From positions 24,564,597-24,628,596 of the forward strand of contig CM046347.1 of the NCBI GenBank assembly GCA_025403435.1: a stretch of DNA of 64,000 bases, written 5' to 3'. The DNA comes from Artocarpus heterophyllus. Taxonomy: Eukaryota > Streptophyta > Magnoliopsida > Rosales > Moraceae. A program made the translations under genes and the position numbers. The notes beneath the pieces are model-generated. The model had not been told where the DNA came from, did no database searches, and was given only the letters and a program-made list of their open reading frames with translations. The first letter of the stretch is position 1, and the number at the start of each line of letters is the position of its first letter. Shown here piece after piece: positions 17,854-55,350 of the stretch.

Positions 17854-19723
17854 TGTTAGACATGTATGCCCTAAGGAGTAAAAATCTAATAAGTTTTTGG
17901 AGAAATTTTTATCAATAAATAATTTATTATCTTGTCCTCTTTACGTTCATATTTGTTGAATGTATGTTAAGCAAACAACAGTCTGAGACTGTCGGCCTAA
18001 ACCTTAAGAATTGGGCATATGGTGGACGAATTATGTGGAATACACGATTCTTAAGGTGATGGTCTAAATCATACGATCCGTAATCGAGGGAATAAAGCTG
18101 GGCGCTTTATTCATGCAAAGATTGTTATGTTGTCTATATCCCTTTTGGGAGATGATTTGTCTTGATCATCGGAGGTGGACTCAGTGAATAGAAACATTGG
18201 CACTTTGTCATAAGTGATGATGTGTTGGATCGGGACATAAAGTGAATTGATTTGGATTAATAATTCTATCTCGGCAAATCGATTCATTTTAGACAATCAT
18301 TTGTGTTGTATCTTAATCCTGAGATGAATAGTGGGCCCGTTGTCTTGGCTTATGTCTTTTGATGTACCAAAGGGTGACACCCACATCTTAATAGTGGTAT
18401 GCATGCCGGTACGTTGGAGGCATGATTCTTGATAGCGTAGACTTGTTATTCACAGATATAGAATCCATAGCTCCTCTTTAGGAGTAATGATATCCTCTTA
18501 TATGCGTTATCCTGTAATTGGAAAACTGGAGCGCTCAACCATTTGGATACATAGGTGTAACCGAATGGTATACTGTCTTTGGATGGTAAGTTTTCTAATG
18601 GTGAGATAATAGAACGTAAGATAAAAATAATCGGGAAGGTAAGACAGAACTTGTCCTTAAGCCGATTATGGATAATGATATGGGGATATAATATACTATG
18701 ATATGTCATGGAGACTTAGCTATACAAGCTTCATAATTCTATGTAGTTCGAAAGTGCAGCTCTAAGCTTTTAATGGAGTAGCATTGGAGTTAATAATTAT
18801 GAAATTTATATATGAGATATTGGGTTTCATAATTATCAGGAGTTTAAACTATATAGGTCCATTTGGTCGCTTTTGCTAGCTTACAACATCCTATAATGAT
18901 ATGACGTGCTTTTCCAATAATTGGTGACTTATGTCTGATTTATTAGATTGGTTAAAATTTGGAAGAATCAGATAATTCATGTCTGTTTATCGATTGAATT
19001 AATTTTTATTATAAAATTAATTCAAGATAAACTTGTTGAATTATTGAGATCGGATAATTCTTGTCTGTTTATCGGTTGATTTAATTTTTGAATAAATTAA
19101 ATCAAGATAAACTTGTAGAATTATTAGGAATTCATTTATTTTCTTAGAGATTATCTAGATAAAGTTGTTTTAATCAGATAACTTTTATATTGAGTTATTT
19201 GAATTGAAACTGAGACTTTATCCTATAGAATCTCGGGTGGAAAATAAAAGATCTGCTGAGATATTAATCGGTAGTTCGACATGTCGATCCTTAAGTTCGG
19301 CCTACCGATGGCGCCTGTTCGGCCTGTCGATCATCCTGATCGGCCTGCCGATGAGCGAAGGATAAGATCACACATTTTTATGTGGATCTTATCAAATGTT
19401 GATCCAAATTTGATTCTGATTCAAATTTTGAGACCTAATCTGATAAGGTATAACCCTGGACCCAACCTCTATAAATAGGGAGTAAGTCATATAAGTTATT
19501 TAGATCAATTGAGAGATTAAGAGTGATACTCTGCTGGTGAGAATCTGAAAACTCCTTGAGAGCTCTTGTTCACAAATCACGAACACTAGCTTTGGGTTCT
19601 CTCAATTGGTTAAGGCTCTTCTGGAACGTTACTTCTCTTCACTGATTGCTTGTCAAACTTATGTTTTAGAAAATACTCTGGTATAAAATTTTTAGAATTC
19701 CGCTGCGTACTATTTTTCCAACA
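17854..19723 (+). mobile_element. Solo Ty1/copia-type LTR B (1870 bp)
   Basis: Starts TGTTAGACATGTATGCCC and ends TTTTTCCAACA. Flanks are TCTCT (17849-17853) and TTTCT (19724-19728). The uninterrupted left Harbinger arm (near 8010) reads TTTCTCTAAGATCAT in reverse complement, confirming that this is the empty site and that one TSD copy has mutated. TATA box TATAAATA at 19470-19477; quasi-palindrome array at 19268-19352. It is 212 bp from LTR A in opposite orientation, with Harbinger sequence between. Confidence 0.9.
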
Positions 19724-23182: not shown

Positions 23183-25213
23183 TGTTAGACATGTATGCCC
23201 TAAGGAGCAAAAATGTAATAAGTTTTTGGAGACATTTTATCAATAAAGAATTTATTCATTATTTATATACCAAATCTTGTCCTCTTTATGTTCATATTTG
23301 TTGAATGTATGTTAAGCAAACAACAGTCTGAGACTGTCGGCCTAAACCTTAAGAATTGGGCATATGATTGACGAATTATGTGGAAGACACGATTCTTAAG
23401 GTGATGGTCTAAATCATACGATCCATAATCGAGGGAATAAAGCTGGGCGCTTTATTCATGCAAAGATTGTTATGTTGTCTATATCCCTTTTGGGAGATGA
23501 TTTGTCTTGATCATCGGAGGTGGACTCAGTGAATAGAAACATTGGCACTTTGTCATAAGTGATGATGTGTTGGATCGGGACATAAAGTGAATTGATTTGG
23601 ATTAATAATTCTATCTCGGCAAATCGATTCATTTTAGACAATCATTTGTGTTGTATCTTAATCCTGAGATGAATAGTGGGCCCGTTGTCCTGGCTTGTGT
23701 CTTTTGATGTACCAAAGGGTGACACCCACATCTTAATAGTGGTATGCATGCCGGTACGTTGGAGGCATGACTCTTGATAGCGTAGACTTGTTATTCACAA
23801 ATATAGAATCCATAGCTCCTCTTTAGGAGTAATGATATCCTCTTATATGCGTTATCCTGTAATTGGAAAACTGGAGCGCTCAACCATTTGGATACATAGG
23901 TGTAACCGAATGGTATACTGTCTTTGGATGGTAAGTTTTCTAATGGTGAGATAATGGAACGTAAGATAAAAATAATCGGGAAGGTAAGACAGAACTTGTC
24001 CTTAAGCCGATTATGAAGTATTATATGGGGATACGATACACTATGATATGTCATGGAGACTTAGCTATACGAGCTTTGTAATTCTATATAGTTCGAGAGT
24101 GCAGCTCCAAGCTTTTAGTGGAGCAGTGTTGGAGTTGATAATTATGAAATGTATATCTGGGATATTGGGTTTCATAATTATCAGGAGCTTGAACTATATA
24201 GGTTCATTTGGTCCCCTTTACTAGCTCACAACATCCTGTAACGACATGGTGTATTTTTTTAATAATTGGTGACTTGTGTCAGATTTATCAGATTGGTTAA
24301 AATTTGGAAGAATTAAATAATTCATGTTGGTTTATCGGTTGAATAAATTTTGTAAGAAATTAATTCAAGATAAACTTGTTGAATTATTGGGATAAGATAA
24401 TTCTTGTCTGCTTATCGGTTGATTTAATTTTGTATAAATTAGATCAAGATAAACTTTTAGAATTATTGAGAATTGATTTATTTTCTTAGAGATTATCTAG
24501 ATAAAGTTGTTTTGATCAGATAACTTCTCTATTGGGTTATTTGAATTAAAACTTAGACTTTATCCTATAGAATTTTGGGTGGAAAGTAAAAGATTCGCGA
24601 GATTTTTTATTCGGCAGTTCGACCTACCGATAGACGTGTTCGGCCTACCGATGGGACCTGTTCGCCCTGCCGATTAGGTGGTTCGCCCTACCGATCAACA
24701 AAGGATAAGATCACGCGTATCTATGCGGATCTTATCAAATATTGATCCAAATTTGATTTTAATCTGAATTTTGAGACCCAATCTGATGAGGACTGACCAT
24801 AGGACCAACCTCTATAAATAGGGAGTGATTCTGACAAGTTACTTAGATCAATAGAGAGATTAAGAGTGATACTCTGCTAAGTGAGAATCTGAAAAACTCC
24901 CTGAGAGCTTTTGTTCACAAATCACGAACACTTGCTTTGGGTTCTCTCGATTGGTTGGAAGGAGAGTCACCGGTGGAAGAGCTGTACGTGTGAGCCCACA
25001 CTCACTTCGGTCGTGGATAGAGAATAGCAAAGTAGACCAGTTGGCTGAGGCTCTTGAATGTTATTTCTCTTCACAGATTGCGGAGCCTCTTCAGCATACA
25101 AAGGTTAGTAAGATCTGGTTAATTTATGCATATAGCATGTCAAACTTGTGTTTTGGAAATTACTTTGATGATATAAATTTTTTAAAATTTCGCTGTGCAC
25201 TCTTTTTCTAACA
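23183..25213 (+). mobile_element. 5' LTR (LTR C, 2031 bp) of a copia-type element
   Basis: Starts TGTTAGACATGTATGCCC and ends at TTTTTCTAACA, directly followed by a methionine-tRNA primer-binding site. Four quasi-palindromic units (24606-24702) lie about 110 bp upstream of the TATAAATA box at 24813-24820. GTGCC precedes it (23178-23182), and GTCCC follows the partner LTR at 33936, a target duplication with one mismatch. LTR C and LTR E share diagnostic variants (for example GCTAAGTGAGAAT after the TATA box) that LTR D lacks, so C and E are the pair of one insertion. Confidence 0.9.
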
Positions 25214-25215
25214 AT

Positions 25216-25716: not shown

Positions 25717-25922
25717 GGTCGGCATGCCGAACATCACAGTTCGGTAGGCCGATGGTCACAGATCGGCATGCCAGACGTGTAGTTCGGTAGGCCATCAGTG
25801 GGGCAGAAATCGGCTGGCTCTGCCGGCAAGCCGAACTTTCAAGGGTCGGCAGGCCGATCTTACTGATCGACAGACCGATAGAGCATGACCGGCAGGCCGA
25901 TCACCTAGAACGGCCTGCCGAC
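25717..25922 (+). repeat. Array of ~10 quasi-palindromes (TCGGCAGGCCGA type) in the leader
   Basis: Units start near 25718, 25740, 25762, 25783, 25822, 25845, 25866, 25888 and 25909, mostly 21-23 bp apart. Central variants include CATG, TAGG, CAGG and CCTG. In RNA each can form a short stem with a 4-nt loop. The array sits about 0.5 kb after the PBS and 0.7 kb before gag, apart from the four-unit array in the LTR. Confidence 0.85.
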
Positions 25923-27757: not shown

Positions 27758-29801
27758 TGTTGGAAAAAATAATTTGAGGTACGCAGTGGGAATTTTTTAG
27801 ATTTTAACATCAGAGTATTTTTCCAAAACACAAGTTTGACATGCTATATGTATAAATTAAACAGATCTTACTAACCTTTGTGCATCAAAGAACCTCCGCA
27901 ACCTATGAAGAGAAGTAACATTCCAGAAGAGCCTCAACCAACTGGTCTTCTTTGCTATTCTCTATCCGCGATCGGAGGGAGTGTGGGCTCACTCATACAG
28001 CTCTTCCACCAGTGACTCTCCTTCCAACCAATCGAGAGAACCTAAAGCTAGTGTTCGTGATTTGTGAACAAAAGCTCTCAGGGAGTTTTCATATGCTCAC
28101 CAGAAGAGTATCACTCTTAATCTCTCAATTGATCTGAGTAACTCATGAGACTTACTCCCTTTATATAGCAATTGGTCCTGGGGTCAGTCCTTATCAGATT
28201 AGGTCTCAAAAACTCAAAATAAAATCAAGTTTAGATCAATATCTGATAAGATTCGCGTGAAAAAGCATAATCTTATCTCTCGTTGATCGATAGGTCGAAC
28301 AGCCTGATCGGTAGGCTAAACAGGCCCCATCGGCAAGCCAAACACGTAGATCGGCAGGACGAACTGCCGCGTAAATATCTCCATGAATTTTTTATTTTTC
28401 TCCCGAGATTCTATAGGATAAAGTCTCAGTTCTAATTCAAATAACCCAATAGAAAAGTTATCTGATCAAAACAAACTTTATCAAGATAATCTCTAAGAAA
28501 ATAAATCAATTCACCATAATTCTACAAGTTTATCTTGATTTAATTTATCCAATTAAATCAACCGATAAATAGACAAGAATTATCCGATCCCATTAATTCA
28601 ACAAGTTTATCTTAAAGTAATTTTATTACAAAATTAATTCAACCAATAAACAGACATGAATTATTTGATTCTTCTAAATTTTAAACCAATCTGATAAATC
28701 CGACATAAGTCACCAATTATTGAAAAAGCACGCCGTATCATTATAGGATTTTGTGAGCTAACAAAGGGGACCAAAATAGACCTATAAAGTTCAAGCTCAT
28801 GATAATTATGAAACCCAATATCCCAGATATACATTTCACAATTATCAACTCCAACGCTACTCCACTAAAAGCTTGGAGCTGCACTCTCGAACTTTATAAA
28901 ATTACGAAGCTCGTATAGCTAAGTCTCCATGACACATCATAGTGTGTCGTATCTACAAATGATAATCCATAATCGGCTTAAGAACAAGTTCTGTCTTACC
29001 TTCCCGATTATTTTTATCATACGTTCCATTATCTCACCACTAGAAAACTTTCCATCCAAAGATAGTATACCATTCGGCTACACCTATGTATCCAAATGGT
29101 TGAGCGCTCCAATTTTTCAATTACAGGATAACGCATATAAGAGGATATTATTACTCCTAAAGAGGAGCTATGGATTCCATATCTATGAATAACAAGTCTA
29201 CATTATCAAGAGTCATGCCTCCAACGTACCGGAATGCATACCACTATTGAGATGTAGGAGTCACCGTTTGGTACATCAAAAGACACAAGTCGAGACAACG
29301 GGCCCACTATCCATCTCAGGATTAAGATACAATACAAATGATTGTCTAAAGTGAATCGATTTGCCAAGACAGAATTATTAATCCAAATCAATTCAATTTG
29401 TGTCCTGATCCAACACATTGTCACCTATGACAACGTGACAATGTTTCTATTCATGAAGTCTAACTCCGATGGCCAAGACAAACCATCTCCCAATCGGAAT
29501 ATAGACAACATAACAATCTTTGCATGAATAAAGCGCCCAACTTTGTTCCTTCGATTGCGGATCATATGTTTTAGACCGTCTCCTTAAGAATCGTGTCTTC
29601 CGCATAATCAGTCCATCATGTGCCCAATTCTTAAAGGTTTAGACCGACAGTCTCAGACTACTGTTTGCTTAACATACATTCAACAAATATGAATGTAAAG
29701 AGGACAAGATTTGGTATTTATAAATGAATAAATTCTTTATTGATAAAAATGTCTCCAAAAATATATTACATTTTTACTCCTTAGGGTATACATGTCTAAC
29801 A
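27758..29801 (-). mobile_element. 3' LTR (LTR D, 2044 bp) of an inverted, nested copia element
   Basis: On the minus strand it starts TGTTAGACATGTATACCC at 29801 and ends ...TTTTTTCCAACA at 27758. It is preceded (element orientation) by the typical copia polypurine tract, so it is a 3' LTR. Four quasi-palindromic units at 28285-28366; TATA-like TATATAAA on the minus strand at 28160-28167. About eight extra bases lie near its 3' end compared with other copies. Sequence variants group it apart from LTRs C and E, so it belongs to a separate insertion that landed in the protease region of element C/E. Confidence 0.85.
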
Positions 29802-29816
29802 ATCTCCCACTTGCAC
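29802..29816 (-). other. Polypurine tract of nested copia element D
   Basis: Minus-strand GTGCAAGTGGGAGAT immediately before the LTR, the plus-strand primer site typical of plant copia elements. It abuts the pol stop codon. Confidence 0.85.
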
Positions 29817-32424: not shown

Positions 32425-33935
32425 GTCTTTTGATGTACCAAAGGGTGACACCCACATCTTAATAGTGGTATGCATGCCGGTACGTTGGAGGCATGACTCT
32501 TGATAGCGTAGACGTGTTATTCATAGATATGGAATCCATAGCTCCTCTTTAGGAGTAATGATATCTTCTTATATGCGTTATCCTGTAATTGGAAAACTAG
32601 AGCTCTCAACCATTTGGATACATAGGTGTAACCGAATGGTATATTGTCTTTGGATGGTAAGTTTCTAATGGTGAGATAATGGAATGTAAAATAAAAATAA
32701 TCAGGAAGGTAAGATAAAACTTGTCCTTAAGCCGATTATGGAGTATCATATGGGGATACGATACATTATGATTTGTCATGGAGACTTAGCTATACGAGCT
32801 TCGTAATTCTATGTAGTTCGAGAGTACAGCTCCAAGCTTTTAGTGGAGTAGCATTGGAGTTGATAATTATGAAATGTATATTTGGGATATTGGGTTTCAT
32901 AATTATCAGGAGCTTGAACTATATAGGTCCATTTGTTACCCTTTGCTAGCTCACAACATCCTGTAATGACACTACGTGTTTTTCCAATAATTGGTGACTT
33001 GTGTCAGATTTATCAGATTGGTTAAAATTTGGAAGAATTAAATCATTCATGTCTGTTTATCGATTGAATTAATTTTGTAAGAAATTAATTCAAGATAAAC
33101 TTGTTGATTGGGATCAGATAATTCTTGTCTGTTTATCTGTTGATTTAATTTTGGATAAATTAGATCAAGATAAACTTGTAGAATTATTGAGAATTGATTT
33201 ATTTTCTTAGAGATTATCTAGATAAAGTTGTTTTGATCAAATAACTTCTCTATTGGGCTATTTGAATTAAAACTGAGACTTTGTCCTATAGAATCTCGGG
33301 TGAAAAGTAAAAGATTCGCGAGATTTTTTATTCGGTAGTTCGGCCTACCGATGGACGTGTTCGGCCTGCCGATGGGACCTGTTCGGCCTGCCGGTCAGGT
33401 GGTTTAGCCTGCCGATCAGCGAAGGATAAGATCACACGTATCCATGCGGATCTTATCAGATATTGATCCAAATTTGACTATGATCTGAATTTTGAGACCT
33501 AATCTGATAAGGACTGACCCTAGGACCAACCTCTATAAATAGGGAGTGATTCTCACAAGTTACTCAGATCAATAGAGAGATTAAGAGTGATAGTCTGCTA
33601 AGTGAGAATATGAAAAACTCCCTGAGAGCTTTTGTTTACAAATCACGAACACTTGCTTTGGGTTCTCTCGATTGGTTGGAAGGAGAGTCACCGGTGGAAG
33701 AGATGTACGTGTGAGCCCACACTCACTCCGATCATGGATAGAGAATAGCAAAGAAGTCCAGTTGGTTGAGGCTCTTCTGGAACGTTATTTCTCTTCACAG
33801 ATTGCGGAGGTTCTTCAGCATATAAAGGTTAGTAGGATCTGGTTAATTTATGCATATAGCATGTCAAACTTGTGTTTTGAAAATTACTCTGATGATATAA
33901 ATTTTTAAAATTCCACTACGTATCTTTTTCCAACA
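32422..33935 (+). mobile_element. 3' LTR (LTR E) of copia element C/E, 5'-truncated
   Basis: Matches LTR C from its TGTGTCTTTTGATGTACC segment (about 23698) to the end TTTTTCCAACA. The first ~515 bases are lost at the hairpin junction. Quasi-palindromic units at 33339, 33360, 33382 and 33403 are the cleanest set among the copia LTRs. TATAAATA at 33534-33541. GTCCC at 33936-33940 is the near-match to GTGCC before LTR C. Confidence 0.9.
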
Positions 33936-33940
33936 GTCCC

Positions 33941-37365: not shown

Positions 37366-37639
37366 ATTCTTGTAACGTCCCGAAATTTATTTAATATTAA
37401 TATAATGTAAATGATGAATTAGTGTGCCATAATTAAAGTTTTAACTTTAATTAGATTATTTGGTTGGATTTTTAGTTTTTGATTGTTTTGTTAAATTGAT
37501 GTGTTCAAAAGATTCCTTGTTGATTTAAAATGATGTTTTGAGTTTTAAAACACAACAATTTGTAAAATGTTAAAAATACTCCGTTTTGCAAAACCGTGGG
37601 CGGCACATGGTTTTCGCACAGTAAAACCGCCCACCGATT

Positions 37640-37750
37640 TTCTCTATTTATTTCTCTCTTCTCTCTCTCCCTCTTCATTCTCACGGGCTCTCTCTCTCTC
37701 TTCCCTCTCTCTCACTCGGCAGCCTCTCTCTCTCTCTCAATCTCTCTCAA
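37640..37750 (+). repeat. CT-rich microsatellite tract in the 5' LTR
   Basis: Long (CT)n/(CTT) pyrimidine runs, repeated in the 3' LTR at 44541-44651. The position suggests the start of the transcribed leader. Confidence 0.8.
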
Positions 37751-38219
37751 ATTTTTGATTTCCATTCGAATCCAAGCTTCGGAACAGCAAGGAGGAAGCT
37801 CGGGGACGTGATTCGGCAACCGAGAACGCGGATTGAAGCTTCGATTCGAGGTTAGATTCGAAATTTCTAAACTTTTTCAAAATTTTCGAATTTGTGTGTT
37901 TTTTAAATCTAAGTTTGTTTAAGCTTAGAAAACTGTGGATTTGTGTTAAATGAGCTTAGAACAACTAGAATCTAAACCTAGATTGAAGAAAAACGGATTG
38001 GATTCAAGATTTTTCATTTTTCTCCTCTTTTTCTCATTTTCGGATTTTTGAAGATTTTGAGTTCAAATGTTGTTTAAATGATTCCAAACATGTTTTAGAA
38101 TGTTTTTCTATCAACTATAGTTATTTTTCATGCCTGGGATTTGAGAAAAACAGGTTGGAATTCAGATTTGGATTTTGGGGATCGAGAAACCCGTGGCTGG
38201 GATTTCTGGATTTTCCCAG

Positions 38220-38389
38220 TTCGGCAGGCCGAAGTTCATGTTCGGCAGGCCGAAGTTCATGATCGGCAGGCCGGTGTTCTTCCGATCGGCAGGCCGAATC
38301 TGGGGAAATGTTCGGCAGGCCGAACCTCGTTTCCGGCAGGCCGAACTGTGCAGTTCGGCAGGCCGAAGCAGGGCGTCCGGCAGGCCGAC
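38220..38389 (+). repeat. Eight-unit TTCGGCAGGCCGAA array, 5' LTR
   Basis: Units start at 38220, 38241, 38262, 38285, 38311, 38332, 38354 and 38376 (spacing 21, 21, 23, 26, 21, 22, 22). The CGGCAGGCCG core is invariant in all eight while the spacers differ, apart from units 1-2, whose spacer AGTTCATG-type sequence is shared. The unit is an inverted repeat, TTCGGC/GCCGAA, around AG. Confidence 0.97.
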
Positions 38390-39528
38390 CGAGGCATGGA
38401 AAATTTTGTGATTTTTACCCGATTTCATTGTTTTGAACCCTAATTTAAATCCCAACCTTATAGGATGATTTTAATGATACGAATGGCACACTAGGACATC
38501 ATGAAATGATTTAGTAACATAGAATGTTTCGAACTAGATATTGATCGACTTAGTTTGTATCTAGGACTGTTCGTGGTTCCGTGGAGCTAACGTATAGCGG
38601 ATCGGGATTACGGTGTGGGGTACCGGCACGAGTACTGAGGTAGGACTTCTATCCTATTTCTTTGGTAGCCTGGTTTTGAAATGATTTGGCTTTGAAAAGG
38701 ATTTCTCTCAAAATGTTTTCAACGGATGTTTGAAAATGGTTTTATCGGTTATATTTTTATATACCGTGACATGAAATGAATTTCATAATGAATGTAATTG
38801 ACAACACTCGGTAAATGGGTTTTGAATGATAATGATAATAACCACATGGGCATGATGCCATATCAGAGATCGGGTCGTGATCGACCTTGGGGGCAGGTCC
38901 CGAAACCCAGCTGGGCCACTACGGTGGTGATATCATGGTTTGCCTAGGTAAAAGTAAACTGGTGTTTTGATTTGACGAGTAGACGGTTCTGTGCCAGAAC
39001 GGTTCTACTCAATTTATTTATTTATTTATTTAAGTTTCTTCTTGCATACCTCCTAATAATGTTATGTTTCTTTGCAATAAATTATTTTATAAAACTTAGT
39101 CCTACTGAGCCTTTCGCTCACGTTTTATCTGTTTTAAATCCCCCCCTTCTAGGTGGTTTCCCATTTAGGTTTGGAGAAGATTCTTCGGACCGAACTCAGG
39201 AGCAATAGGAGAATTTATTTACAATCTGTATTTATTAATCAAGGCATGTAAGACTTAATTTTATTTGTACTTGGACTGTAATTGTATTTGTGATATTGTC
39301 AGATCCATGTGTGTGCACAAGTTGTGGGTTGTGGAACCCATATTCGCGGTTTTTATTCAATTATTATTATTTGCTTAATATTTATAAATTCTTTTATCAA
39401 ATGTGGCGGAAAATCTTCTTAATTTTTATTTAATTGGGTTCTCAAACTCTCGGTTTTTAATTAAATTCTCTTTTAATTAATCTAAATACTCCGCCACGTC
39501 ACCTCCCGTACTCCGGGGCGTGACAGAA

Positions 39529-39630: not shown

Positions 39631-42600
39631 ATGGCACCTAGACGTCGTTCGACAGCTGACGCCGAGTTCGGAAATGATGAGGGCCTGATGAGGTCTATGA
39701 TTGCGGCTTTCCGGCAGATGGCAGCCAGGACTAGACCGGAAGACTCCAGTGTTGGTAGTCGGCATGCCTTCTTTAAGGAATTTCGGCGGGCGTCTATTCC
39801 GACTTTTGATGGTAATGGGGATCCGCAGTTAGCAGAGTATTGGTTGGATTCGATCTTGAAGCATCTTGATACTCTTGGTGTGCCTGAGGAGTATCGTGTG
39901 GAATTCGCGGCGTATAAGCTCGAGGGTGGCGCCAACACCTGGTGGAAACAAACTAAGCGTCTGGAGCGCGGTGGCGATATCGGTTGGGACAAGTTCGAGG
40001 ATCTGTTCTATGATCGGTATTTTCCGCAGGGGTATAGAGATCAGAAAGCAGCTGAGTTTTATAGATTGCAGCAGGGTGATATGTCAGTTCGGGAGTACGA
40101 GGCAAAGTTTAGCGAGTTGGCTAGGTTTGCTCCATCAGCTGTGGCATCGGAGCGCGAGAAATGCATCAAGTTTCAGGAAGGACTCAAGGCTCCTATTCGA
40201 CGGCAGTTGGTTGCTCTACGGCTTAGGAGTTTCGGAGAGCTTGTGTCGTCGGCGATCTCCGTGGAGAATGATTACGTGCAGTATTGTGAGGATCGAGCCA
40301 AGGCTTCAGGAGGACCGCAGAGGAGTGGCAGGAAGAGCACCAGTAGTCGTCCAGCTCCGGGGAAAGGCAAGCAAGGCGGTGCGACCAGTGGCAGCAGCAG
40401 TTCGTCTGGTAGCGGGCGCAGCAACCCCTACAGCTTTCATTGTCATTTCTGTCAGCAGCCCGGACACATCAAGAGGAATTGCCCGATCAGGAGTGCTCGT
40501 CTTGGATCGCAGACCGGGGAGGATGCCAGTCGTTCATCTCAGCCTCAGCCTCAGACCCTACCTCCGCCTCCGCAGTACCCGCAGTTGCAGTATCCGCAGT
40601 TTTCTCCTCAGCAATTCTCATATCCGGCACGGGGACAGCAGCCGCAGTATTTTCAGCGCAGTGTTCCTCAGTATAGAGCTCCGAGTACAGGTAGTGTGCA
40701 GTCATCTCCATCTCAGCAGTATCGGCCGAGTAATGCAGGACCCAGCAATGTCGGTAGAGGAAAAGGGAAGGCGCCAGTGCAGGTTCATGCAATGGCATCT
40801 GGAGGGTCAGATTCTCAGACTGGTAACGCGGTTGTCGATGGTATGGTTTTGGTTTCTAGATCTCTAGCTCGCGTTTTATTTGATACCGGTGCCTCTCATT
40901 CTCTCATTTCGAGTTCTTTTGTACATGCCTTGGGATTAGAAGTAGAAGAGTTTAAGGAACCCCTAGTTATAACTTCTCCCTTGGGGCGGGTGTGTGTGAA
41001 TTGTATGTGTAAATCTTGTAAAATAAAGATTGGGGATGAGATTTTGAAAAGTGATTTGATTGTACTCCCCATGAGTTCCTATGATGTGATTTTAGGGATT
41101 GACTGGTTGTCCAGGTATAGTGCAGTTGTGGACTGCCAACTTAGAAAAGTGACCCTAGTGTCTGAAAGTGGGACGGTAATCACTTACCAGGGTGGTGGTG
41201 ATTGGCTAATGAGTGAGCGTCTCATGAAGTCATGTCTAGGAGGGCGAAGGAATCTAGATTGTTTTGCTTTTCTTGCCAATCTAGATTGCGAGCCCTATGT
41301 TTCGAGTAGTGGTGTAGCGATTCCGGTGGTTGGTGAGTTCGAGGATGTCTTCCCCGACGAGTTATCAGGATTACCACCGCATCGGGAGATTGAGTTTGGT
41401 ATCGAGTTGTTTCCAGGGACATCACCGATTTCTATGGCACCTTATCGGATGGCGCCGGCAGAAATGAAGGAATTGAGGAGGCAACTTCAGGAGCTTGCTG
41501 ATAAAGGATATATTCGGAATAGCACATCTCCGTGGGGAGCACCAGTTTTGTTCGCTAAGAAGCACGATGGGACTCTCAGGTTATGTGTGGATTATCGGCA
41601 GCTGAATCGTGTTACGGTGAAGAACAAGTATCCTTTGCCTAGGATTGATGAGCTATTTGATCAGTTGGGAGGTTCGCGATACTTCTCGAAGATTGATTTG
41701 CGGTCAGGTTATCATCAGCTCAGAATCAAGGAAGAGGATATTCCCAAGACAGCTTTTAGGACTCGGTATGGGCACTTCGAGTTTCTGGTTATGTCTTTCG
41801 GGTTGACGAATGCTCCAGCAGCTTTTATGGATTTGATGAACAGGATATTTCGGCCATATCTGGATCAGTTTGTGATCGTGTTCATCGATGATATTCTTGT
41901 GTATTCTAAGACATGGGAGGAGCATGAGCAGCATCTTCGGATCGTGCTTCAGACTCTGCGGGAGCACCAGTTGTATGCTAAGAGGGAAAAATGTGAGTTC
42001 TGGTTGACTGAGGTCAAATTTCTGGGTCATGTCATCTCGGAGCATGGTATTTCAGTGGATCCGTCCAAGATTGAAGCTATATTGGAGTGGGAACGACCAA
42101 GGAATGTAGCGGAGATTCGCAGCTTCTTAGGTCTTGCTGGATATTACAGGAAATTTGTAAGGGACTTTTCAAAGATTGCAGCTCCGTTGACGAGATTGAT
42201 CAGGAAAAACGTCAGGTTTGAGTGGGATGAAGACTGTGAGTCTGCTTTCCAGGAATTGAAGAACCGGTTGACTTCAGCTCCAGTATTAGTTATTCCTAGT
42301 AGTGACGAGCCGTATGAGGTTTGTGCTGATGCTTCAGGGCGCGGACTTGGATGCGTGTTGATGCAGCATGGACGTGTGGTTGCGTACGGATCGAGACAGC
42401 TACGACCTCACGAGCGGAATTATCCTACTCACGATTTAGAGCTTGCGGCGGTGATCTACGCGCTGAAGATTTGGAGATGTTACTTGTATGGGGCATCGTT
42501 TCAGGTCTTCTCCGATCATAAGAGTTTGAGGCATTTGTTCACTCAGAGGGATCTCAACTTGAGGCAGCGCAGATGGGTGGAGTACATGGAGGATTATGAT

Positions 42601-44223
42601 TTCGCGTTGCAGTATCATCCCGGAAAAGCTAATGTGGTAGCGGACGCGCTTAGCAGGAAATCTTCAGGGATTCTCGCTTGTTTGATTTTTGAGGACTGGA
42701 GCAGGGATGCGACAGTGAGTGAGTATCGGCTACAGTATCATGAAGACGGTGATCGAGTTTTGTTATATCATGTGGAAGCGACTCCAGCTCTTGTTCGGAT
42801 GGTGAAGCAAGGTCAGTGGCAGGATCGACATTTGCAGGGGATTTGGTCGCGGATTCAGAACGGGGAGCAGTTCGAGGAATGGAGCGTGCATGCAGATGGA
42901 TCGTTGTACTTCCGGGAGCGTCTTGCAGTTCCAGTTATCGCCAAGGTGACGAAAGCCGTTCTAGATGAAGCTCATAGGTCTCAGTTTGCTATTCATCCGG
43001 GGAGCACCAAGATGTATCGTGATTTGAAGAGGCACTATTGGTGGAGAGGTATGAAGAAAGATGTTCGCGAGTACGTGGCCAAGTGTTCGACGTGTCTTCA
43101 GGTGAAAGCTGAGCACCAGAAGCCTGCAGGTCAGCTTCAGCCGCTTCCTATTCCAGGGTGGAAATGGGAGCATGTGACGATGGATTTCCTCACAGGTTTG
43201 CCGAGGACGGAGCAGCGGCATGATGCAGTTTGGGTTGTGGTCGACAGGTTGACGAAATCGGCGCATTTCATTCCGTTTAGGTCGACGTGTTCCAGGAAGA
43301 TTCTCGGGGAGTTGTATATGCAGAACATTGTGAGGTTGCATGGAGTTCCTTTGTCCATCACCTCTGATCGAGACACCAGGTTTAATGCTAAGTACTGGAG
43401 GAGTTTTCAGGAGGCTTTGGGTACGGATTTGAACTTCAGTACGGCGTTTCATCCTCAGACTGATGGGCAGTCTGAGAGGGTTATTCAGGTTCTCGAGGAT
43501 ATGTTGCGTGCTTGTGCGTTGGACTTCGGCGGGAATTGGAAGCAATGTTTGCATTTGGCGGAGTTCGCGTACAACAACAGTTATCAGGCGAGTATCGGTA
43601 TGGCACCATTTGAGGCGTTGTATGGGCGACCGTGTCGGTCACCTGTGTGTTGGGCCGAGCCGGAAGATAGAGTTATTCTTGGGCCAGATGAGATTCGTGA
43701 CAGCAACGAGAAAGTCGTGGTGATTCGGGATCGATTGAGGGCAGCTCAGAGTCGGCAGAAGAGCTACGCGGATAGGAGACGTAGACCTTTAGAGTTCGCG
43801 GTTGGAGATTTTGTTCTCTTGAGGGTGTCACCTCGTAAGGGAACTATGCGGTTCGGAGTGAGTGGGAAACTCGCGCCGAGGTATATTGGGCCGTTCGAGA
43901 TCACTCAGCGTGTTGGTGTGGTCGCTTATCGGCTTGATCTTCCACCCGAACTTTCTCATGTGCACGATGTGTTTCATGTGTCTATGCTTAGGAAGTGTCC
44001 ACCTGAGCAGGGTAAGATAGTATCGTTTCGCGATGTGCAGGTTCAGGAGGATACGACGTACGAAGAAGTGCCGATTCAGATCATCGACCGGAAAGTGATT
44101 AGCTTGCGTCGTCGTGAGATACCGTTGGTAAAGGTCGTGTGGCAGCATCACGGGGTTGATGAAGCCACTTGGGAATTAGAGTCGGGTATGCGGGAATTGT
44201 ATCCGCATTTGTTTTGTTTTTGA
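39631..44223 (+). CDS. Gag-Pol polyprotein of a Ty3/gypsy chromovirus (1530 aa, intact)
   Basis: One frame encodes capsid, protease, RT, RNase H and integrase, so Gag and Pol are made without a frameshift. Visible in order: Retrotrans_gag-type capsid about 55-220; zinc knuckle C271-C274-H279-C284; Gln/Pro/Ser-rich linker; aspartic protease D418-TGAS; RT with LCVDYRQLN (651-659) and catalytic D689, D753, D754 (FIDD); RNase H from D900 to about 1020; integrase zinc finger H1115, H1122, C1152, C1155; integrase core D1185, D1246, E1282 (D-X60-D-X35-E); GPF motif 1420-1422; C-terminal chromodomain-like segment about 1484-1520 ([15 protein letters not shown]), expected to steer integration to chromatin. 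The ATG at 39631 lies 90 bases after the PBS in a good context (GAGAATGGC) with no earlier in-frame Met. GC content is well above the surroundings. No lesion seen. Stop TGA 44221-44223. Confidence 0.98.
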
Positions 44224-44271: not shown

Positions 44272-46426
44272 TGTAACGTCCCGAAATTTATTTAATATTA
44301 ATATAATGTAAATGATGAATTAGTGTGCCATAATTAAAGTTTTAACTTTAATTAGATTATTTGGTTGGATTTTTAGTTTTTGATTGTTTTGTTAAATTGA
44401 TGTGTTCAAAAGATTCCTTGTTGATTTAAAATGATGTTTTGAGTTTTAAAACACAACAATTTGTAAAATGTTAAAAATACTCCGTTTTGCAAAACCGTGG
44501 GCGGCACATGGTTTTCGCACAGTAAAACCGCCCACCGATTTTCTCTATTTATTTCTCTCTTCTCTCTCTCCCTCTTCATTCTCACGGGCTCTCTCTCTCT
44601 CTTCCCTCTCTCTCACTCGGCAGCCTCTCTCTCTCTCTCAATCTCTCTCAAATTTTTGATTTCCATTCGAATCCAAGCTTCGGAACAGCAAGGAGGAAGC
44701 TCGGGGACGTGATTCGGCAACCGAGAACGCGGATTGAAGCTTCGATTCGAGGTTAGATTCGAAATTTCTAAACTTTTTCAAAATTTTCGAATTTGTGTGT
44801 TTTTGAAATCTAAGTTTGTTTTAGCTTAGAAAACTGTGGATTTGTGTTAAATGAGCTTAGAACAACTAGAATCTAAACCTAGATTGAAGAAAAACGGATT
44901 GGATTCAAGATTTTTCATTTTTCTCCTCTTTTTCTCATTTTCGGATTTTTGAAGATTTTGAGTTCAAATGTTGTTTAAATGATTCCAAACATGTTTTAGA
45001 ATGTTTTTCTATCAACTATAGTTATTTTTCATGCCTGGGATTTGAGAAAAACAGGTTGGAATTCAGATTTGGATTTTGGGGATCGAGAAACCCGTGGCTG
45101 GGATTTCTGGATTTTCCCAGTTCGGCAGGCCGAAGTTCATGTTCGGCAGGCCGAAGTTCATGATCGGCAGGCCGGTGTTCTTCCGATCGGCAGGCCGAAT
45201 CTGGGGAAATGTTCGGCAGGCCGAACCTCGTTTCCGGCAGGCCGAACTGTGCAGTTCGGCAGGCCGAAGCAGGGCGTCCGGCAGGCCGACCGAGGCATGG
45301 AAAATTTTGTGATTTTTACCCGATTTCATTGTTTTGAACCCTAATTTAAATCCCAACCTTATAGGATGATTTTAATGATACGAATGGCACACTAGGACAT
45401 CATGAAATGATTTAGTAACATAGAATGTTTCGAACTAGATATTGATCGACTTAGTTTGTATCTAGGACTGTTCGTGGTTCCGTGGAGCTAACGTATAGCG
45501 GATCGGGATTACGGTGTGGGGTACCGGCACGAGTACTGAGGTAGGACTTCTATCCTATTTCTTTGGTAGCCTGGTTTTGAAATGATTTGGCTTTGAAAAG
45601 GATTTCTCTCAAAATGTTTTCAACGGATGTTTGAAAATGGTTTTATCGGTTATATTTTTATATACCGTGACATGAAATGAATTTCATAATGAATGTAATT
45701 GACAACACTCGGTAAATGGGTTTTGAATGATAATGATAATAACCACATGGGCATGATGCCATATCAGAGATCGGGTCGTGATCGACCTTGGGGGCAGGTC
45801 CCGAAACCCAGCTGGGCCACTACGGTGGTGATATCATGGTTTGCCTAGGTAAAAGTAAACTGGTGTTTTGATTTGACGAGTAGACGGTTCTGTGCCAGAA
45901 CGGTTCTACTCAATTTATTTATTTATTTATTTAAGTTTCTTCTTGCATACCTCCTAATAATGTTATGTTTCTTTGCAATAAATTATTTTATAAAACTTAG
46001 TCCTACTGAGCCTTTCGCTCACGTTTTATCTGTTTTAAATCCCCCCCTTCTAGGTGGTTTCCCATTTAGGTTTGGAGAAGATTCTTCGGACCGAACTCAG
46101 GAGCAATAGGAGAATTTATTTACAATCTGTATTTATTAATCAAGGCATGTAAGACTTAACTTTATTTGTACTTGGACTGTAATTGTATTTGTGATATTGT
46201 CAGATCCATGTGTGTGCACAAGTTGTGGGTTGTGGAACCCATATTCGCGGTTTTTATTCAATTATTATTATTTGCTTAATATTTATAAATTCTTTTATCA
46301 AATGTGGCGGAAAATCTTCTTAATTTTTATTTAATTGGGTTCTCAAACTCTCGGTTTTTAATTAAATTCTCTTTTAATTAATCTAAATACTCCGCCACGT
46401 CACCTCCCGTACTCCGGGGCGTGACA
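44272..46426 (+). mobile_element. 3' LTR of the intact gypsy element
   Basis: Same length (2155 bp) as the 5' LTR and differing at three bases that I could find. It ends GGGGCGTGACA, followed by the ATTCT duplication. Confidence 0.97.
45121..45290 (+). repeat. Eight-unit TTCGGCAGGCCGAA array, 3' LTR
   Basis: Identical to the 5' LTR array at 38220-38389, all eight cores and spacers conserved. Confidence 0.97.
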
Positions 46427-47813: not shown

Positions 47814-49736
47814 TATTAGACATGATACCCTAAGGAGTAAAATGGTATAATTTGTTTTTGAAGACATTTTATCAATAAAGAGTTTATATATTATTCATAT
47901 ATCAAATGTTGTCCTCTTTATACTCATTTCTGTTAAATATATAATAAGCAAACAAAAGTCTGAGACAATCGGTCTAAACCTTTAAGAATTGTGTATATAA
48001 TGGATAGATTATACAGAAGACATGAATGTTAAAGGTGATGGTCTAAATCCAAAGAATAAGGTTGGGCACTTTATTCATGCTAAGATTGTTATGTTGTCTA
48101 TATTCCTAACAGGAGATGGCTTCTTCTAGTCATCGAAGTGGGACTTCACGAGTTGAAACATTGGTGCATTGTCATAGGTCACGATGTATTAGATCAGGAC
48201 ATAAATTTGAATTGATTTGGATTAATAATTCTATTTATGCAAATCAATTCACTTTAGACAATCATATGTGTTGTGTCTTAATCCTGAAATGACTTATGGG
48301 CTCGTTATCTTAACTTATGTCTTTTGATGTATCAAAGGGTGGCATCCTGACTTTATGATGGTGTGTATGCCGTTACGTTGGAGACATGACTCTTGATTGC
48401 ATGGACTTGTTATTCATAGATATGGAATCCATAGCTATTTTTGTAGAGTTAATGATATTCGCTTATATGCGTTATCCTATAATTGGAATAATAAAGTGCT
48501 CAACTATTTGGATACATAGGTGTAACTGAATGGTATACTATCTATAAATAGTTAGTATTCCAAAGGTGTGATAATGGAACGTAAGATAAAAATAATCAAG
48601 AAGGTAAAACAGAATTTATCCTTAAGCCGATTATGAATATCCTATGGGGATATGACACATTATGATATGTCATGGACGGTTAGCTTAATAAAACTTTGTA
48701 ATTTTATATAGTTCGAGAGTGCAGCTCTAAGCTTTTAGTGGAGTAGTGTTAGAGTTGATAATTATAAAATATGTATATAGGATATTGTATTTTATAATTA
48801 TAGGAACTTGAACTGTATATGTCCATCAGGTCCACTTTGTTACCTCATAATAAATCCTACAATGATATGGCATGTTTTTCCTACATATTGGTGACTTATG
48901 TTAAATTATTATATTGGCTAAAATTTGATAAGATTAGATTTAATAATTCATGTAAGTTTATTGGTTGTAAATTAATTCAAGATAAACATGTTAAATTATC
49001 TGGATAATATTTTATTTTCTATGAGATTATCTAGATATGACTATTTTGATTAGATAACTTTTCTATTAAGTTATTTAGATTAAAATTGAGGCTCTATCTA
49101 AGAATCTTGGGCGAAAAATAAGATATTCTCAAGGATCAAATTATCGCAAGCTCGATAGGCCGATGCATTAGTCCAGCCTGCCGATGGAGTAAGTTCGGTA
49201 GGCCGATGGGAAAGTTCGGTCTGTCAATTGTGCGATATTTTGTATACACATTTTAGACATGTTTTTCACCAAAAGTTGATGCAAATTCGAATTTTGAGGC
49301 CTTATTTGATAGGAATTAATCCCATATTCGACCACTATAAATAGGGGGTGAGCTTGCTCAGCTATTTAGATCAATGGAGAAGCATAGAGTGAGTACTTTA
49401 GTTTAAGAAACTCTAAAACTCCTTGAGAGTTGTTGTTTAACATCATAAACTTTAGTTCAAGGCCTTCTCGAGTGGTTGGAAGGAGAGTCACTAGAGGAAG
49501 AGCTGTATGACATGTGAACACCCACACTCCGATCGTGGATAGAGAATAGCAAAGAAGACCAGTTGGTTGAGCCTCTTCTGGAACGCTCTTCTCTACACGG
49601 ATTCAAGCCTACTTCGATATACAAAAGGTTAGTAAGATCTATCATTAATTATGAATATAGTATGTCTAACATGTGTTTTAGAAAATACTCTGTTTGAAAT
49701 TATTTAAAATTTCACTACATACTTGTTTTTCCAACA
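47814..49736 (+). mobile_element. Solo Ty1/copia-type LTR F (1923 bp)
   Basis: Starts TATTAGACATGATACCC (TG mutated to TA) and ends TTTTTCCAACA. Flanks GCAAC (47809-47813) and GCAAT (49737-49741) are a duplication with one transition. TATAAATA at 49336-49343, quasi-palindromic units near 49150, 49171, 49193 and 49214. With LTR G it forms a subgroup distinct from A-E. Confidence 0.88.
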
Positions 49737-49741
49737 GCAAT

Positions 49742-52530: not shown

Positions 52531-55350
52531 TGTGTTTATTAAGTATCATGTTCGATGAATTCAACATTTTGACTATAATAAACCAATATATTTCATGTAT
52601 CAATAATAAGCAAGCATACAATTTAGTTATAAAACATATAATAACATAAATATATCAATGTGAAAAATCATGAGAAAACACATTAATTACAACGATAATT
52701 CCTAGCCCTATTCATGTCAGCTACCTCGGGGCAATCATGTTAGACATGGTGCCCTAAGGAGTAAAATGTTATAATATGTTTTTGGAGGCATTTTATCAAT
52801 GAAGATTTTATTTATTATTCATATACTAAATGTTACCCTCTTTATGTTCATTTTTGTTAAATGTATGATAAGCAAACAAAAGTCTGAGATTGTCGGTCTA
52901 AACCTTTAAGAATTTTGAATATGATGGACAAATTATGCAGAAGACATGAATATTAAAGGGGATGGTCTCATAAGATCTGCAATCGAGGAAATAAAGTTAG
53001 GCACTTCATTCATGCTAAGATTGTTATGTTGTCTACATCTTTAACAGGAGATGGCTTGTCTTGGTCATCGAAGTGGGAGTCCGCGAGTAGAAACACTAGT
53101 GCATTGTCATAAGTGACGATGTATTGCATCAAGATATAAAGGTTGAATTGATTTGGTTAATAATTCCCTTTGTGCAAATCAATTCACTTTAGACAATCAT
53201 ATGTGTTGTGTCTTAATCCTGAAATGACCAATGGGCTCATATTCTTGACTTATATCTTTTGATGTACAAAGGGTGACATCTTGACTTAATGATGGTACGT
53301 ATACCGGTATGTTGGAGACATGACTCTTGATTCGTATAGACTCATTATTCATAGATATGGGAACCATAACTCTTTTGTAGAGTTAATGATATTCTCTAAT
53401 ATGCATTGTCCTGTAATTGAAGGACTAGAGCGCTTAACCATTTGGATACATAGATGTAATAGAATAGAATATTGTCTTATGAATAGTAAGTATTCCAATG
53501 GTGTGATAATGGAATGTAAGATAAAAATAATCATGAAGATGAAACAGAATTTATCCTTAAGCCAATTATGAATATCTTATGGGGATGTAACATATTACAA
53601 TATGTCATAGATGGTTAACTTATTAAAGCATCATAATTTATAAAGTTCAAGAATGCAGCTCTAAGCTTTTAGTGGAGTAGCGTTAGAGTTGATAATTATA
53701 AAATATGTGTCTGGGTTATTGTATTTTATAATTATAGGAGCTTACACTATATATGTCCATCAGGTTTCCTTTGCTAGCTTATTATAAATCCTGTAACGAT
53801 ATGGCATGTTTTTTCCTACATATTGGTGACTTATGTTAAAATATTAAATTGGCTAAAATTTTATAAGATTAGATTTAATAATTCATGCAAGTTTATTAGT
53901 TGAATTAATTTTGTAAATAGATTCAAGATAAACATGTTGAATTATTTGGATAATATTTTATTTTCAATGAGATTATCCAGATTTAACTGTTTTGATCAGA
54001 TAACTTTTTTATTGGGCTATTTAAATTAAAACTAAGACTCTATCTAAGATTCTCAGGTGGAAAATAAGATATTTTTAGAGATCAAAATTATCGTAAGTTT
54101 GGCAGGCTGATGGGAAACGTTGGCCTGCCAATGGAGTAAGTTCAGCATGCCGATCTCCCAAATCGGCTTGCCAATCGTGCGATAATCTGTATACACATTT
54201 TTGATGCATTTTTCATAAGAAGTAGATCCAAACTCGAATTCTGAGGCCTAATCAGGTAAGATTTAACCCCAAATTCGAACACTTTAAATAGGGGGTGAGT
54301 TTTTTCAATTATTTAGATCATTTGAGAAGCATAGAGTAAGTACTCCAGTTTGAGAAACTCTAAAACTCCCTGATAACTATTGTTTAACATCAAGAACCTT
54401 AGTTCTATGTATTCTTAAACGGTTGGAAGGAGAGTCACTGAAGAAAAAGCTGTACAATATGTGACCACCATACTCTGATCATGGATAGAAAATAGCAAAG
54501 AAGACTAGTTGGTTGAGGCTCTTCTAGCACGTTCTTCTCTTCACAGATTCCTACTACTTTTGGTTAACAAAAGAGGTTAATAAGATCTGTCATTAATTTA
54601 TGTATTTAGCATATCGAACTTGTGTTTTGAAAAATACTTTGATTTAAAATTTTTAAAATTTTGCTGTGTACCATTTTTCCAACAAGTCAGACACAAACTA
54701 GCCTGGAACATGGATCCCATCGGATTAGTATATACCAACTAACTACCGCTTTATTTGGTCACTAATTTAATTAACAAAACTCCTCAAGGAGTTTAATAAA
54801 TAAATTCATCTTAAGTGTATAACCATTGTGTATATCTTATGAACCATGACCCATAAATTGCCACCTTAGGGCGTACAACCATGAATCATACAAACAGACA
54901 TTTTTCCTAAGAAGTCGAATATAGTATACCACTGGTGGTGAACAACTTTTATCAAGGTTGGCATCACCTAGTTTCACATATGGACTAACAATGGAGACTG
55001 TGGGTCCTAATTAAGAACCCTCTCCCAATCAATATCTTAAAAACAACAAGATTTATATAACAACATGCATGAACAATTTTCTGAGTGACACTTCCAATTC
55101 TACATGATTTGTTATCAAACATGTGGCAAATCATATCATAAAGCATACAAGCATAGCACGATAGCATGGCAAAAGCAATATGTACATATGGTCATAATAT
55201 TATGGTCTTACCCTAGAGCAAGAAAATAAAAGATTACAAAAATAAACCAAAACATATAGCGGTCTTCATTCTTGCATCTTGTACTTGCATCCGTCTTCAT
55301 ATGGTTTAATTTTCTGAATTAACCTTTCCAATAAAATTCCCATAATTTTA
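52531..55350 (-). mobile_element. copia leader remnant, minus strand, split by LTR G
   Basis: Upstream (minus strand) of the Gag remnant. The part after LTR G (54690-55350) resembles the leader of element C/E in reverse complement, for example GGTTGTACGCCCTAAGGTGG near 54885 and the TTTTATTTTCTTGCTCTAGGGT block near 55220. It suggests a minus-strand copia element whose LTR would lie beyond 55400 but is not recognisable. Confidence 0.5.
52738..54684 (+). mobile_element. Solo Ty1/copia-type LTR G (1947 bp)
   Basis: Starts TGTTAGACATGGTGCCC and ends TTTTTCCAACA. Flanks AATCA (52733-52737) and AGTCA (54685-54689) match with one transition. The TATA box is decayed to TTTAAATAG (near 54284). Quasi-palindromic units near 54097, 54119, 54140 and 54161 are the most decayed set, but spacing is kept. 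Inserted in an older copia leader. Confidence 0.88.

What the first reader, a model, noticed from the sequence alone, without database searches (positions are those of the whole stretch)
38220..38389. The same ~21-22 bp-phased quasi-palindrome array in unrelated gypsy and copia elements
Seen: TTCGGCAGGCCGAA occurs eight times in each LTR of the intact gypsy element. The same unit, or its CCTG-centred form, occurs four times in every copia LTR here (A 16137-16215, B 19268-19352, C 24606-24702, D 28285-28366, E 33339-33416, F 49150-49228, G 54097-54175) and about ten times in the copia leader at 25717-25922. Spacing is nearly always 21-23 bp, two DNA turns. Gypsy and copia LTRs do not otherwise resemble each other, so inheritance from a common LTR is unlikely. 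Inference: either one family captured the array from the other, or a host factor selects for it (a dimeric DNA-binding protein on one helix face, or RNA hairpins). I know of no described element with this name or role.
Basis: partly seen in the sequence, partly recalled or inferred. Interest (0 to 1): 0.88.

Follow-up and report, generated by a model that had tools for sequence, protein, structure and literature searches.

The report
Shared phased palindrome array in retrotransposons
A 14-base near-palindrome, repeated every 21-22 bases in blocks of four, sits in the non-coding regions of three plant retrotransposon families whose control regions do not otherwise match, and its exact form occurs about 33,000 times in this genome; it likely serves as a shared docking array for a host DNA-binding protein, and blocks of it may have been copied from one family to another.

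Summary
CGGCAGGCCG occurs 8 times per gypsy LTR (the exact 14-mer TTCGGCAGGCCGAA only 4 times). Every copia LTR in the window carries about four mostly diverged units; the copia leader has nine or ten. The genome (985 Mb, a flowering plant by its pol relatives) holds 33,063 TTCGGCNNGCCGAA sites, 88% with an AG/CT centre, against 27 for the reversed control. Neighbour pairs: 42,671 at period 19-24, 3,315 at 25-30. In 250 kb sampled, 32 of 32 exact cores lie in LTRs or leaders of three families: Ty3/gypsy (Tekay-like), a relative with unrelated LTRs of about 3.1 kb, and one copia group. Gypsy and copia LTRs match only over the array. Spacers diverge far more than units in 4 of 4 comparisons.

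The kind of feature is not new: Sireviruses carry CGG-CCG palindromic repeats in their LTRs (Bousios 2010). New, within the papers searched: gypsy and non-Sirevirus copia hosts, the shared asymmetric centre, phasing in fours, and array-only similarity that is flipped relative to transcription in one family. Best reading: a binding-site array for a dimeric host factor, at least partly spread by block capture. No function was tested.

The parts
37371..39525 (+). 5' LTR of the intact Ty3/gypsy element (begins TGTAACG, ends GTGACA)
   Evidence: 99.86% identical to 44272-46426; TSD ATTCT, PBS TGGTATCAGAGC next to it
38220..38389 (+). 8-unit CGGCAGGCCG array, two blocks of four (spacings 21,21,23 | 26 | 21,22,22), all AG-centred in sense
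39631..44223 (+). gag-pol ORF of the gypsy element (gag, protease, RT, RNase H, integrase order)
   Evidence: Pfam scan
44272..46426 (+). 3' LTR of the gypsy element
45121..45290 (+). 8-unit array of the 3' LTR
16133..16215 (-). 4-unit array in copia LTR A (15610-17645)
19268..19352 (+). 4-unit array in copia LTR B (17851-19611)
24606..24702 (+). 4-unit array in copia LTR C (23183-25221)
25718..25922 (+). 9-10 unit array in the leader of copia C, between PBS and gag (4 | 39-bp step | 5)
28285..28366 (-). decayed 4-unit array in copia LTR D (27780-29802), the 3' LTR behind the - strand pol pieces at 32410-29816
   Evidence: below the score cut
33339..33416 (+). 4-unit array in copia LTR E (32422-33936, 5'-truncated)
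49150..49228 (+). array in copia LTR F (47816-49737), 3 scored units and a decayed fourth
54097..54175 (+). 4-unit array in copia LTR G (52738-54688)

Best explanation
The array is a cluster of near-palindromic sites that likely act as a cis-regulatory docking platform for a dimeric host DNA-binding protein, and blocks of it were probably captured from one retrotransposon family by another and then, it is inferred, kept because they help the element to be transcribed. Shown: the same 14-base unit (TTCGGC-AG/CT-GCCGAA) occurs in blocks of four at 21-22 bp steps in the LTRs or leaders of three families whose LTRs do not otherwise match. In 4 of 4 comparisons of homologous array regions units are better conserved than spacers. 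Both orientations of the asymmetric centre occur, even within one element. Inferred: a protein reads the dyad, four sites on about one face of the helix are bound together, and the effect is on transcription. Untested: which protein binds, and whether it activates or represses.
For: Confinement and abundance: 33,063 TTCGGCNNGCCGAA sites in 985 Mb, 27 for the reversed control; 29,070 AG/CT-centred, only 1,556 with the fully symmetric CG centre; 32 of 32 exact cores in 25 sampled stretches lie in the three families' LTRs/leaders, which cover 19.6% of the sampled bases.

Phase: 42,671 pairs at period 19-24 against 3,315 at 25-30. In the 25 stretches 19 arrays score at period 20-24, against 0 for four rearranged palindromes and 0 in 314 kb of Markov sequence; two near-cognate palindromes still find 10 and 3.

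Unit-specific conservation: copia A-E against F/G LTRs: units 0.69, spacers 0.37, flanks 0.68 and 0.57 (21 pairs); Tekay-like main type against L025: units 0.74, spacers 0.54, flanks 0.60 and 0.70 (6 pairs).

Orientation and place are free: AG-centred in the gypsy LTR and mostly so in the copia leader, CT-centred in most A-E copia LTRs, both in the third family, which suits a DNA dyad better than an RNA element.

Capture: the gypsy LTR and the LTR of the third family align only over the array, all 8 units in order, in the orientation antisense to the third family's pol; in-register arm letters P 0.007-0.013, inverted control 0.37-0.46; spacing P 0.033, reversed 1.0.
Against: No binding, expression or methylation data. 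In copia A/B against other A-E copies units (0.74) are less conserved than flanks (0.78-0.84); in Tekay main against L027/L013 units (0.84) equal one flank (0.83) and fall below the other (0.91). Not every copy keeps a scoring array: of copies in the sample whose alignment spans the array place, 7 of 7 gypsy LTRs, 6 of 10 copia LTRs and 5 of 6 copia leaders have one. With the extended unit held fixed, spacer similarity between families is near chance in most pairs. Tekay-like against copia leader in-register P is only 0.10-0.20, and for third family against copia leader the inverted control is also low (0.048, 0.033) at two of three widths. Flank similarity between gypsy and copia leader arrays is suggestive at the 5' side only (0.3% of background windows reach it; mid spacer 14%, 3' side 11%), and one out-of-register comparison scores as high (16.2 against 16.4). 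The copia leader array lies downstream of the LTR, presumably inside the transcript, where RNA roles are as natural as DNA ones.
Confidence: 0.5

Rival explanations
1. RNA-level element: transcripts through the array fold into stable hairpins that matter to the element (packaging or dimerisation, for the leader array) or that feed small-RNA silencing, as proposed for maize Sirevirus palindromes.
For: Sense RNA of the gypsy array folds at z -5.75 and of the copia leader array at z -6.39 against dinucleotide shuffles. The first block of four is closed by an extra stem outside the units, with different letters in gypsy (2 and 0 of 500 shuffles reach it in W and L008; 4-14 of 500 in the L022 and L027 copies) and in 4 of 8 copia leaders (2-13 of 500 in L001, L007, L017, L024). 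Maize Sirevirus palindromes are reported as small-RNA hotspots.
Against: With units held and spacers shuffled, folding of the gypsy arrays is no better than chance (z +0.3 to -1.7 over 6 copies, two unit widths); only some copia leaders and LTRs exceed it (to z -3.8), so most structure is a by-product of palindromic units. The closing stem is weak in gypsy L013 and L025, in 4 of 8 leaders and in both arrays of the third family tested. The centre occurs in both orientations.
Confidence: 0.2
2. Independent convergence: each family evolved the same sites on its own because the same host factor is useful to all of them; no array moved between families.
For: LTR similarity stops at the array. Spacers mostly do not match between families once the extended unit is kept. 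Tekay-like against copia leader is not significant in register. Different Sireviruses share near-identical CGG-CCG motifs at low overall sequence homology.
Against: The asymmetric AG/CT centre makes up 88% of all sites, more detail than a symmetric dimer should demand. In-register similarity between the two gypsy-type arrays (P 0.007-0.013) and, less cleanly, between the third family and the copia leader (P 0.014, 0.007, 0.26 at three arm widths).
Confidence: 0.2
3. Neutral minisatellite: the arrays are tandem repeats that hitchhike in LTRs and turn over by slippage, with no function.
For: Unit number varies between copies (leaders with 7, 8 and 9 units), spacers evolve faster than flanks, and 4 of 10 sampled copia LTRs have no scoring array left.
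Against: Neutral repeats would not be expected to keep a 14-base core while spacers of nearly constant length lose similarity, nor to show the same motif at homologous places in diverged subfamilies and in otherwise unrelated LTRs. No exact core was found outside the three families in the sample.
Confidence: 0.07
4. Target of a sequence-specific anti-silencing factor encoded by some element in trans, as VANC proteins are for VANDAL transposons; the retrotransposons exploit it.
For: VANC proteins are sequence-specific anti-silencing factors of VANDAL transposons (search listing and starts of abstracts of PMC5735166 and PMC10398659); that they bind short repeated motifs is recalled.
Against: The intact gypsy ORF shows only gag-pol domains. 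No candidate gene was sought, and VANC targets are family-specific (recalled).
Confidence: 0.03

Closest known systems
Sirevirus repeated motif (RM) boxes, Bousios et al. 2010 (PMC2829016; abstract and sections 9, 10, 11 and 19 read)
   Same: Palindromic, CGG-CCG core (12 of the 13 RMs there), at least 8 copies per element, in the LTR and in a second non-coding site, raised G+C; conserved against divergent flanking sequence.
   Different: There reported as Sirevirus-specific and absent from other copia elements. Here it is in Ty3/gypsy elements and in copia elements with 17 bp between the last aligned pol codon and the 3' LTR, so no room for linker or ENV; the second site is the leader between PBS and gag, not upstream of ENV; one motif with a mostly fixed asymmetric centre is shared by several families; 21-22 bp steps in blocks of four are not mentioned in the sections read.
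Palindrome clusters of maize Sirevirus LTRs (Bousios et al. 2016: not held; described in passages of PMC10760457 and PMC5311732)
   Same: Palindrome-rich, rapidly evolving region of LTRs; RNA predicted to be highly structured.
   Different: The motif differs (CACCGGACNNNGTCCGGTG). Small-RNA mapping is reported there and not available here. [quoted passage not shown]), a parallel for sharing between superfamilies.
VANC target motifs of VANDAL transposons in Arabidopsis (PMC5735166, PMC10398659; search listing and starts of abstracts only; the repeated-motif detail is recalled)
   Same: Short motif repeated in non-coding regions of a mobile element.
   Different: Different motif and element class; the binder there is encoded by the element; no such gene was seen here.

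Membership tests
Sirevirus RM box (as a cis-motif class) | dyad-symmetric unit with CGG-CCG core | tested here: met
   TTCGGC-NN-GCCGAA units in all three families
Sirevirus RM box (as a cis-motif class) | many copies per element (8 or more) | tested here: met
   8 per gypsy LTR; about 4 per copia LTR where kept, plus 7-9 per leader (6 leaders); 8 plus 4-6 per LTR of the third family
Sirevirus RM box (as a cis-motif class) | forms a CpG island in the LTR | tested here: inconclusive
   201 bp at the gypsy array: G+C 0.62, 20 CpG, against 0.35 for the rest of the LTR, but CpG observed/expected is 1.05 against 1.03; copia C array 106 bp G+C 0.53, o/e 1.35 against 0.36 and 0.76 for the whole LTR; no island predictor was run
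Sirevirus RM box (as a cis-motif class) | a short distance upstream of a TATA box | tested here: inconclusive
   gypsy LTR TATA-like words at LTR positions 31, 1718 and 2013, array at 850-1019; copia C words at 1251, 1631, 1990, array at 1424-1520
Sirevirus (SIRE lineage) for the copia elements | linker with multiple PPTs (often ENV) between pol and 3' LTR | tested here: not met
   17 bp lie between the last aligned RNase H codon and the LTR alignment in 6 of 6 junctions (window D, L015, L017, L024, L023 twice)
Sirevirus (SIRE lineage) for the copia elements | RT phylogeny within SIRE | not testable with these tools
   no lineage-labelled reference set; resemblance of the LTR start to Angela-type elements is recalled only
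Ty3/gypsy, Tekay chromovirus | gypsy domain order PR-RT-RH-INT | tested here: met
   Pfam scan of 39631-44220
Ty3/gypsy, Tekay chromovirus | chromodomain (CHDCR type) after integrase | tested here: inconclusive
   no chromodomain family reported at E 1e-3, only SH3_Tf2-1 at the C-terminal side; the C-terminus looks chromodomain-like by eye; lineage name recalled

The most novel reading that the evidence does not exclude
A block of four helix-phased near-palindromes is a regulatory cassette that moves between retrotransposon superfamilies: one ancestral array was copied, and once flipped, into gypsy LTRs of two types and into copia leaders and LTRs, plugging them all into one host factor and seeding tens of thousands of near-identical sites across a plant genome.
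Probability: 0.38. Interest if true: 0.78.

Novelty: new variant of a known kind. Interest (0 to 1): 0.6.

Why it matters
If one host factor serves several retrotransposon superfamilies through the same array, that factor is a single handle on the expression or silencing of much of a plant genome's mobile DNA, and the three families are three separate ways to find it. It would also extend the Sirevirus palindrome motif, described as lineage-specific, to gypsy and other copia elements, and show that regulatory modules, not only genes, can be exchanged between elements whose LTRs are otherwise unrelated. With about 33,000 exact sites, neighbouring genes could have been drawn into the same control.

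Tried and rejected
Common LTR ancestry: rejected; LTR similarity stops at the array. Chance or base composition: rejected. Motif equally common outside these elements: rejected for the sample. Flank homology between the gypsy and copia leader arrays: tried against background windows and unit-preserving shuffles; not decisive. The first test (30 pairs) gave mean z 2.3, but it left the extended arms free; with arms fixed (36 pairs) the mean fell to 1.4, with 1.0 for the inverted control. RNA fold: strong z against dinucleotide shuffles, mostly gone once units are fixed. Mutation spectrum of units: the loose unit caller took in chance words, so I do not use it. Viral contigs: 50 stretches with two neighbouring cores, 48 with one match and 2 with two; I took them for chance matches and did not read them further. 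LBD (LOB-domain) proteins as the binder: a recalled guess; one paper search (listing only) gave no support, and I make no claim. Copia lineage by tree: not done, no labelled references. Two further genome-wide controls (pairs at period 13-18, a rearranged 14-mer) and the AT-centre count were asked for but not answered. On checking I corrected the third family's LTR length from 4.1 kb (the long repeat) to about 3.1 kb.

Full report
WHAT IS THERE. The window holds an intact Ty3/gypsy element: LTRs 37371-39525 and 44272-46426, 99.86% identical, TSD ATTCT, PBS TGGTATCAGAGC and a purine-rich tract before the 3' LTR, and one gag-pol ORF 39631-44223 with protease, RT, RNase H and integrase in gypsy order. 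The name Tekay-like is recalled from LTR ends, LTR length and the look of the C-terminus; no chromodomain family was reported in the scan. Around it lie seven copia LTRs and copia pol pieces. The host is a flowering plant by its pol relatives; the closest named one among the 120 listed is Ulmus minor at 81% identity over 94% of the RT region searched.

THE ARRAY. CGGCAGGCCG occurs 8 times in each gypsy LTR; exact TTCGGCAGGCCGAA 4 times. Copia LTRs carry about four units each, CT-centred in sense in most of A-E and mixed in F/G; the leader of copia C carries nine or ten, mostly AG- or AT-centred. In gypsy the extended unit reads roughly GTTCGGC-AG-GCCGAA. In 25 arrays 103 of 113 spacings are 20-24 bp, 90 of 113 are 21-22 bp; the caller kept only units with a neighbour 19-27 bp away, so this tally is biased, and the genome-wide counts below are the fairer test.

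GENOME-WIDE. The genome is held (985,004,640 bases, 334 contigs). TTCGGCNNGCCGAA: 33,063 sites, reversed control 27. AG centre 14,626 on one strand and 14,444 on the other, together 29,070 or 88%, reversed control 0 and 1. Fully symmetric CG centre: 1,556. Pairs of CGGC[AC][GT]GCCG at period 19-24: 42,671; at 25-30: 3,315. In the listed first places most of the latter are the 26-bp step between the two blocks of the gypsy array.

SAMPLE. I read 25 stretches of 10 kb: 20 on a fixed grid over contigs C1-C20 and 5 at random places (these 5 held no scoring array). At score 26 or more there are 19 arrays in 10 of 25 stretches; 0 in 314 kb of Markov sequence; 0 for four rearranged palindromes. Near-cognate controls AACGGCNNGCCGTT and TTCGGANNTCCGAA still find 10 and 3, as they share most letters. 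Other periods find few (5 at 23-27, 1 at 33-37, 8 at the double step 43-47, 0 at the rest above 27). At score 22 or more there are 21 arrays in 10 stretches, all within LTR or leader matches. Exact cores: 32 of 32 inside the three families' LTRs or leaders, which cover 19.6% of the bases. Not every copy keeps the array: of sampled copies whose alignment spans its place, 7 of 7 gypsy LTRs, 6 of 10 copia LTRs and 5 of 6 copia leaders have a scoring one.

THREE FAMILIES. (1) The gypsy type of the window, also in L008, L013, L022, L027 and, at 67% LTR identity, L025. (2) A relative, called T3, at C1 from 1596595 to the end of the fetched stretch at 1610000, and in L016 and L086: RT 64-71% identical to the window element, LTR of about 3.1 kb (L016 6206-9316; the two long repeats of the C1 copy match over 4.1 kb at 94.5% because each carries a further 1.1-kb block), with two arrays per LTR, 8 units (4+4) and 4-6 units. 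(3) A copia group with about four units per LTR and 7-9 in the leader. Other retroelement pieces in the sample (L009, L019, L021, L079, the gypsy pol of L028) showed no array of their own, but their LTRs may lie outside the stretches.

SHARED BY DESCENT OR BY SELECTION? LTR similarity between gypsy and copia, and between gypsy and T3, is confined to the array. The 8-unit array of T3 aligns in order with that of the window element (68.9% over 206 columns, E 4e-16) in the orientation antisense to T3's pol: the same array sits the other way round. Permuting unit order, in-register letters beside the units are more alike than expected between gypsy and T3 (P 0.013, 0.007, 0.009 for arm widths 2, 4, 6; inverted 0.37, 0.37, 0.46), between T3 and copia leader at two widths (0.014, 0.007, 0.26; inverted 0.68, 0.048, 0.033), and not clearly between gypsy and copia leader (0.10, 0.20, 0.11; inverted 0.35, 0.25, 0.07). 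These are 18 tests on few copies: five gypsy arrays, the two LTRs of one T3 element, and three leaders, of which L007 dropped out at widths 4 and 6. The spacing pattern agrees for gypsy (as in L008 and L022) and T3 (P 0.033, reversed 1.0) and not for the leader. Spacer letters proper do not exceed unit-preserving shuffles in most pairs, and flank similarity of gypsy and leader arrays is not decisive. So capture of a block is moderately supported for the two gypsy-type families and open for copia.

SELECTION ON UNITS. Identities as 5' flank, units, spacers, 3' flank: copia A-E against F/G (21 pairs) 0.68, 0.69, 0.37, 0.57; gypsy main against L025 (6 pairs) 0.60, 0.74, 0.54, 0.70; gypsy main against L027/L013 (9 pairs) 0.83, 0.84, 0.68, 0.91; copia A/B against C, D, E, L001, L015 (10 pairs) 0.84, 0.74, 0.48, 0.78. 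Spacers are the least conserved in 4 of 4. Units exceed both flanks in 2 of 4, one flank in a third, neither in the fourth.

MECHANISM. Within each block of four the units stay within about 0.2 turn of one another (0.3 in T3); the second block of the gypsy array is 0.6-0.9 turn away from the first unit. Indifference to orientation and place, with units conserved and spacers free, fits a protein reading the dyad in DNA. The RNA folds well (z -5.75 and -6.39), but fixing the units removes most of this for gypsy. An extra stem outside the units closes the first block in some gypsy and copia copies, which keeps the RNA rival alive.

KNOWN. Bousios et al. 2010 (PMC2829016; abstract and sections 9, 10, 11 and 19 read) describe CGG-CCG palindromic repeated motifs in Sirevirus LTRs and upstream of ENV, and call them Sirevirus-specific. 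In maize, palindrome-rich Sirevirus LTR regions are reported as small-RNA hotspots, and the same palindrome as the most abundant motif of structured Helitron regions (passages of PMC10760457 and PMC5311732). The copia elements here lack the Sirevirus linker (6 of 6 junctions). I saw no report of such arrays in gypsy elements in the listings of searches (titles and starts of abstracts; 20 of 64 shown), and no paper holds the 10-mer together with 'retrotransposon'; these cover open-licence papers only.

Noticed in passing
window 32369-32421: A perfect 18-bp inverted repeat (TTGAGGTATAGATTCCAC ... GTGGAATCTATACCTCAA) sits where the - strand copia pol pieces meet the truncated + strand LTR E, as at a fold-back or inversion junction.
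   Followed up: no
window 24317-24471 (LTR C; likewise in other A-E LTRs): The copia LTR carries a tandem duplication of about 75 bp (LTR positions 1135-1210 and 1215-1289), shortly upstream of the array.
   Followed up: no
window 24704-24736 and the matching place in B and E: Directly after the copia LTR array a second inverted repeat (GATAAGATC ... GATCTTATC) recurs; slightly changed in D, not intact in A.
   Followed up: no
window 38210-38310 and copia leaders L001, L017, L024: The first block of four is closed by a stem outside the units: ATTTTCCCAG/CTGGGGAAAT in gypsy, TTTCTGCTC/GGGCAGAAA in copia leaders L001 and L017, same architecture with different letters.
   Followed up: partly
genome-wide: The symmetric CG centre is rare (1,556 sites) next to AG/CT (29,070 sites); the cause is open.
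   Followed up: partly
L084/L085 (C1:1595501-1610000): This copy of the third family carries an extra 1.1-kb block with internal tandem repeats beside each LTR, absent from L016 and L086.
   Followed up: no
window 1452-2279 and 63334-63996: The two ends of the window share a repeat in inverted orientation at 80-89% identity.
   Followed up: no
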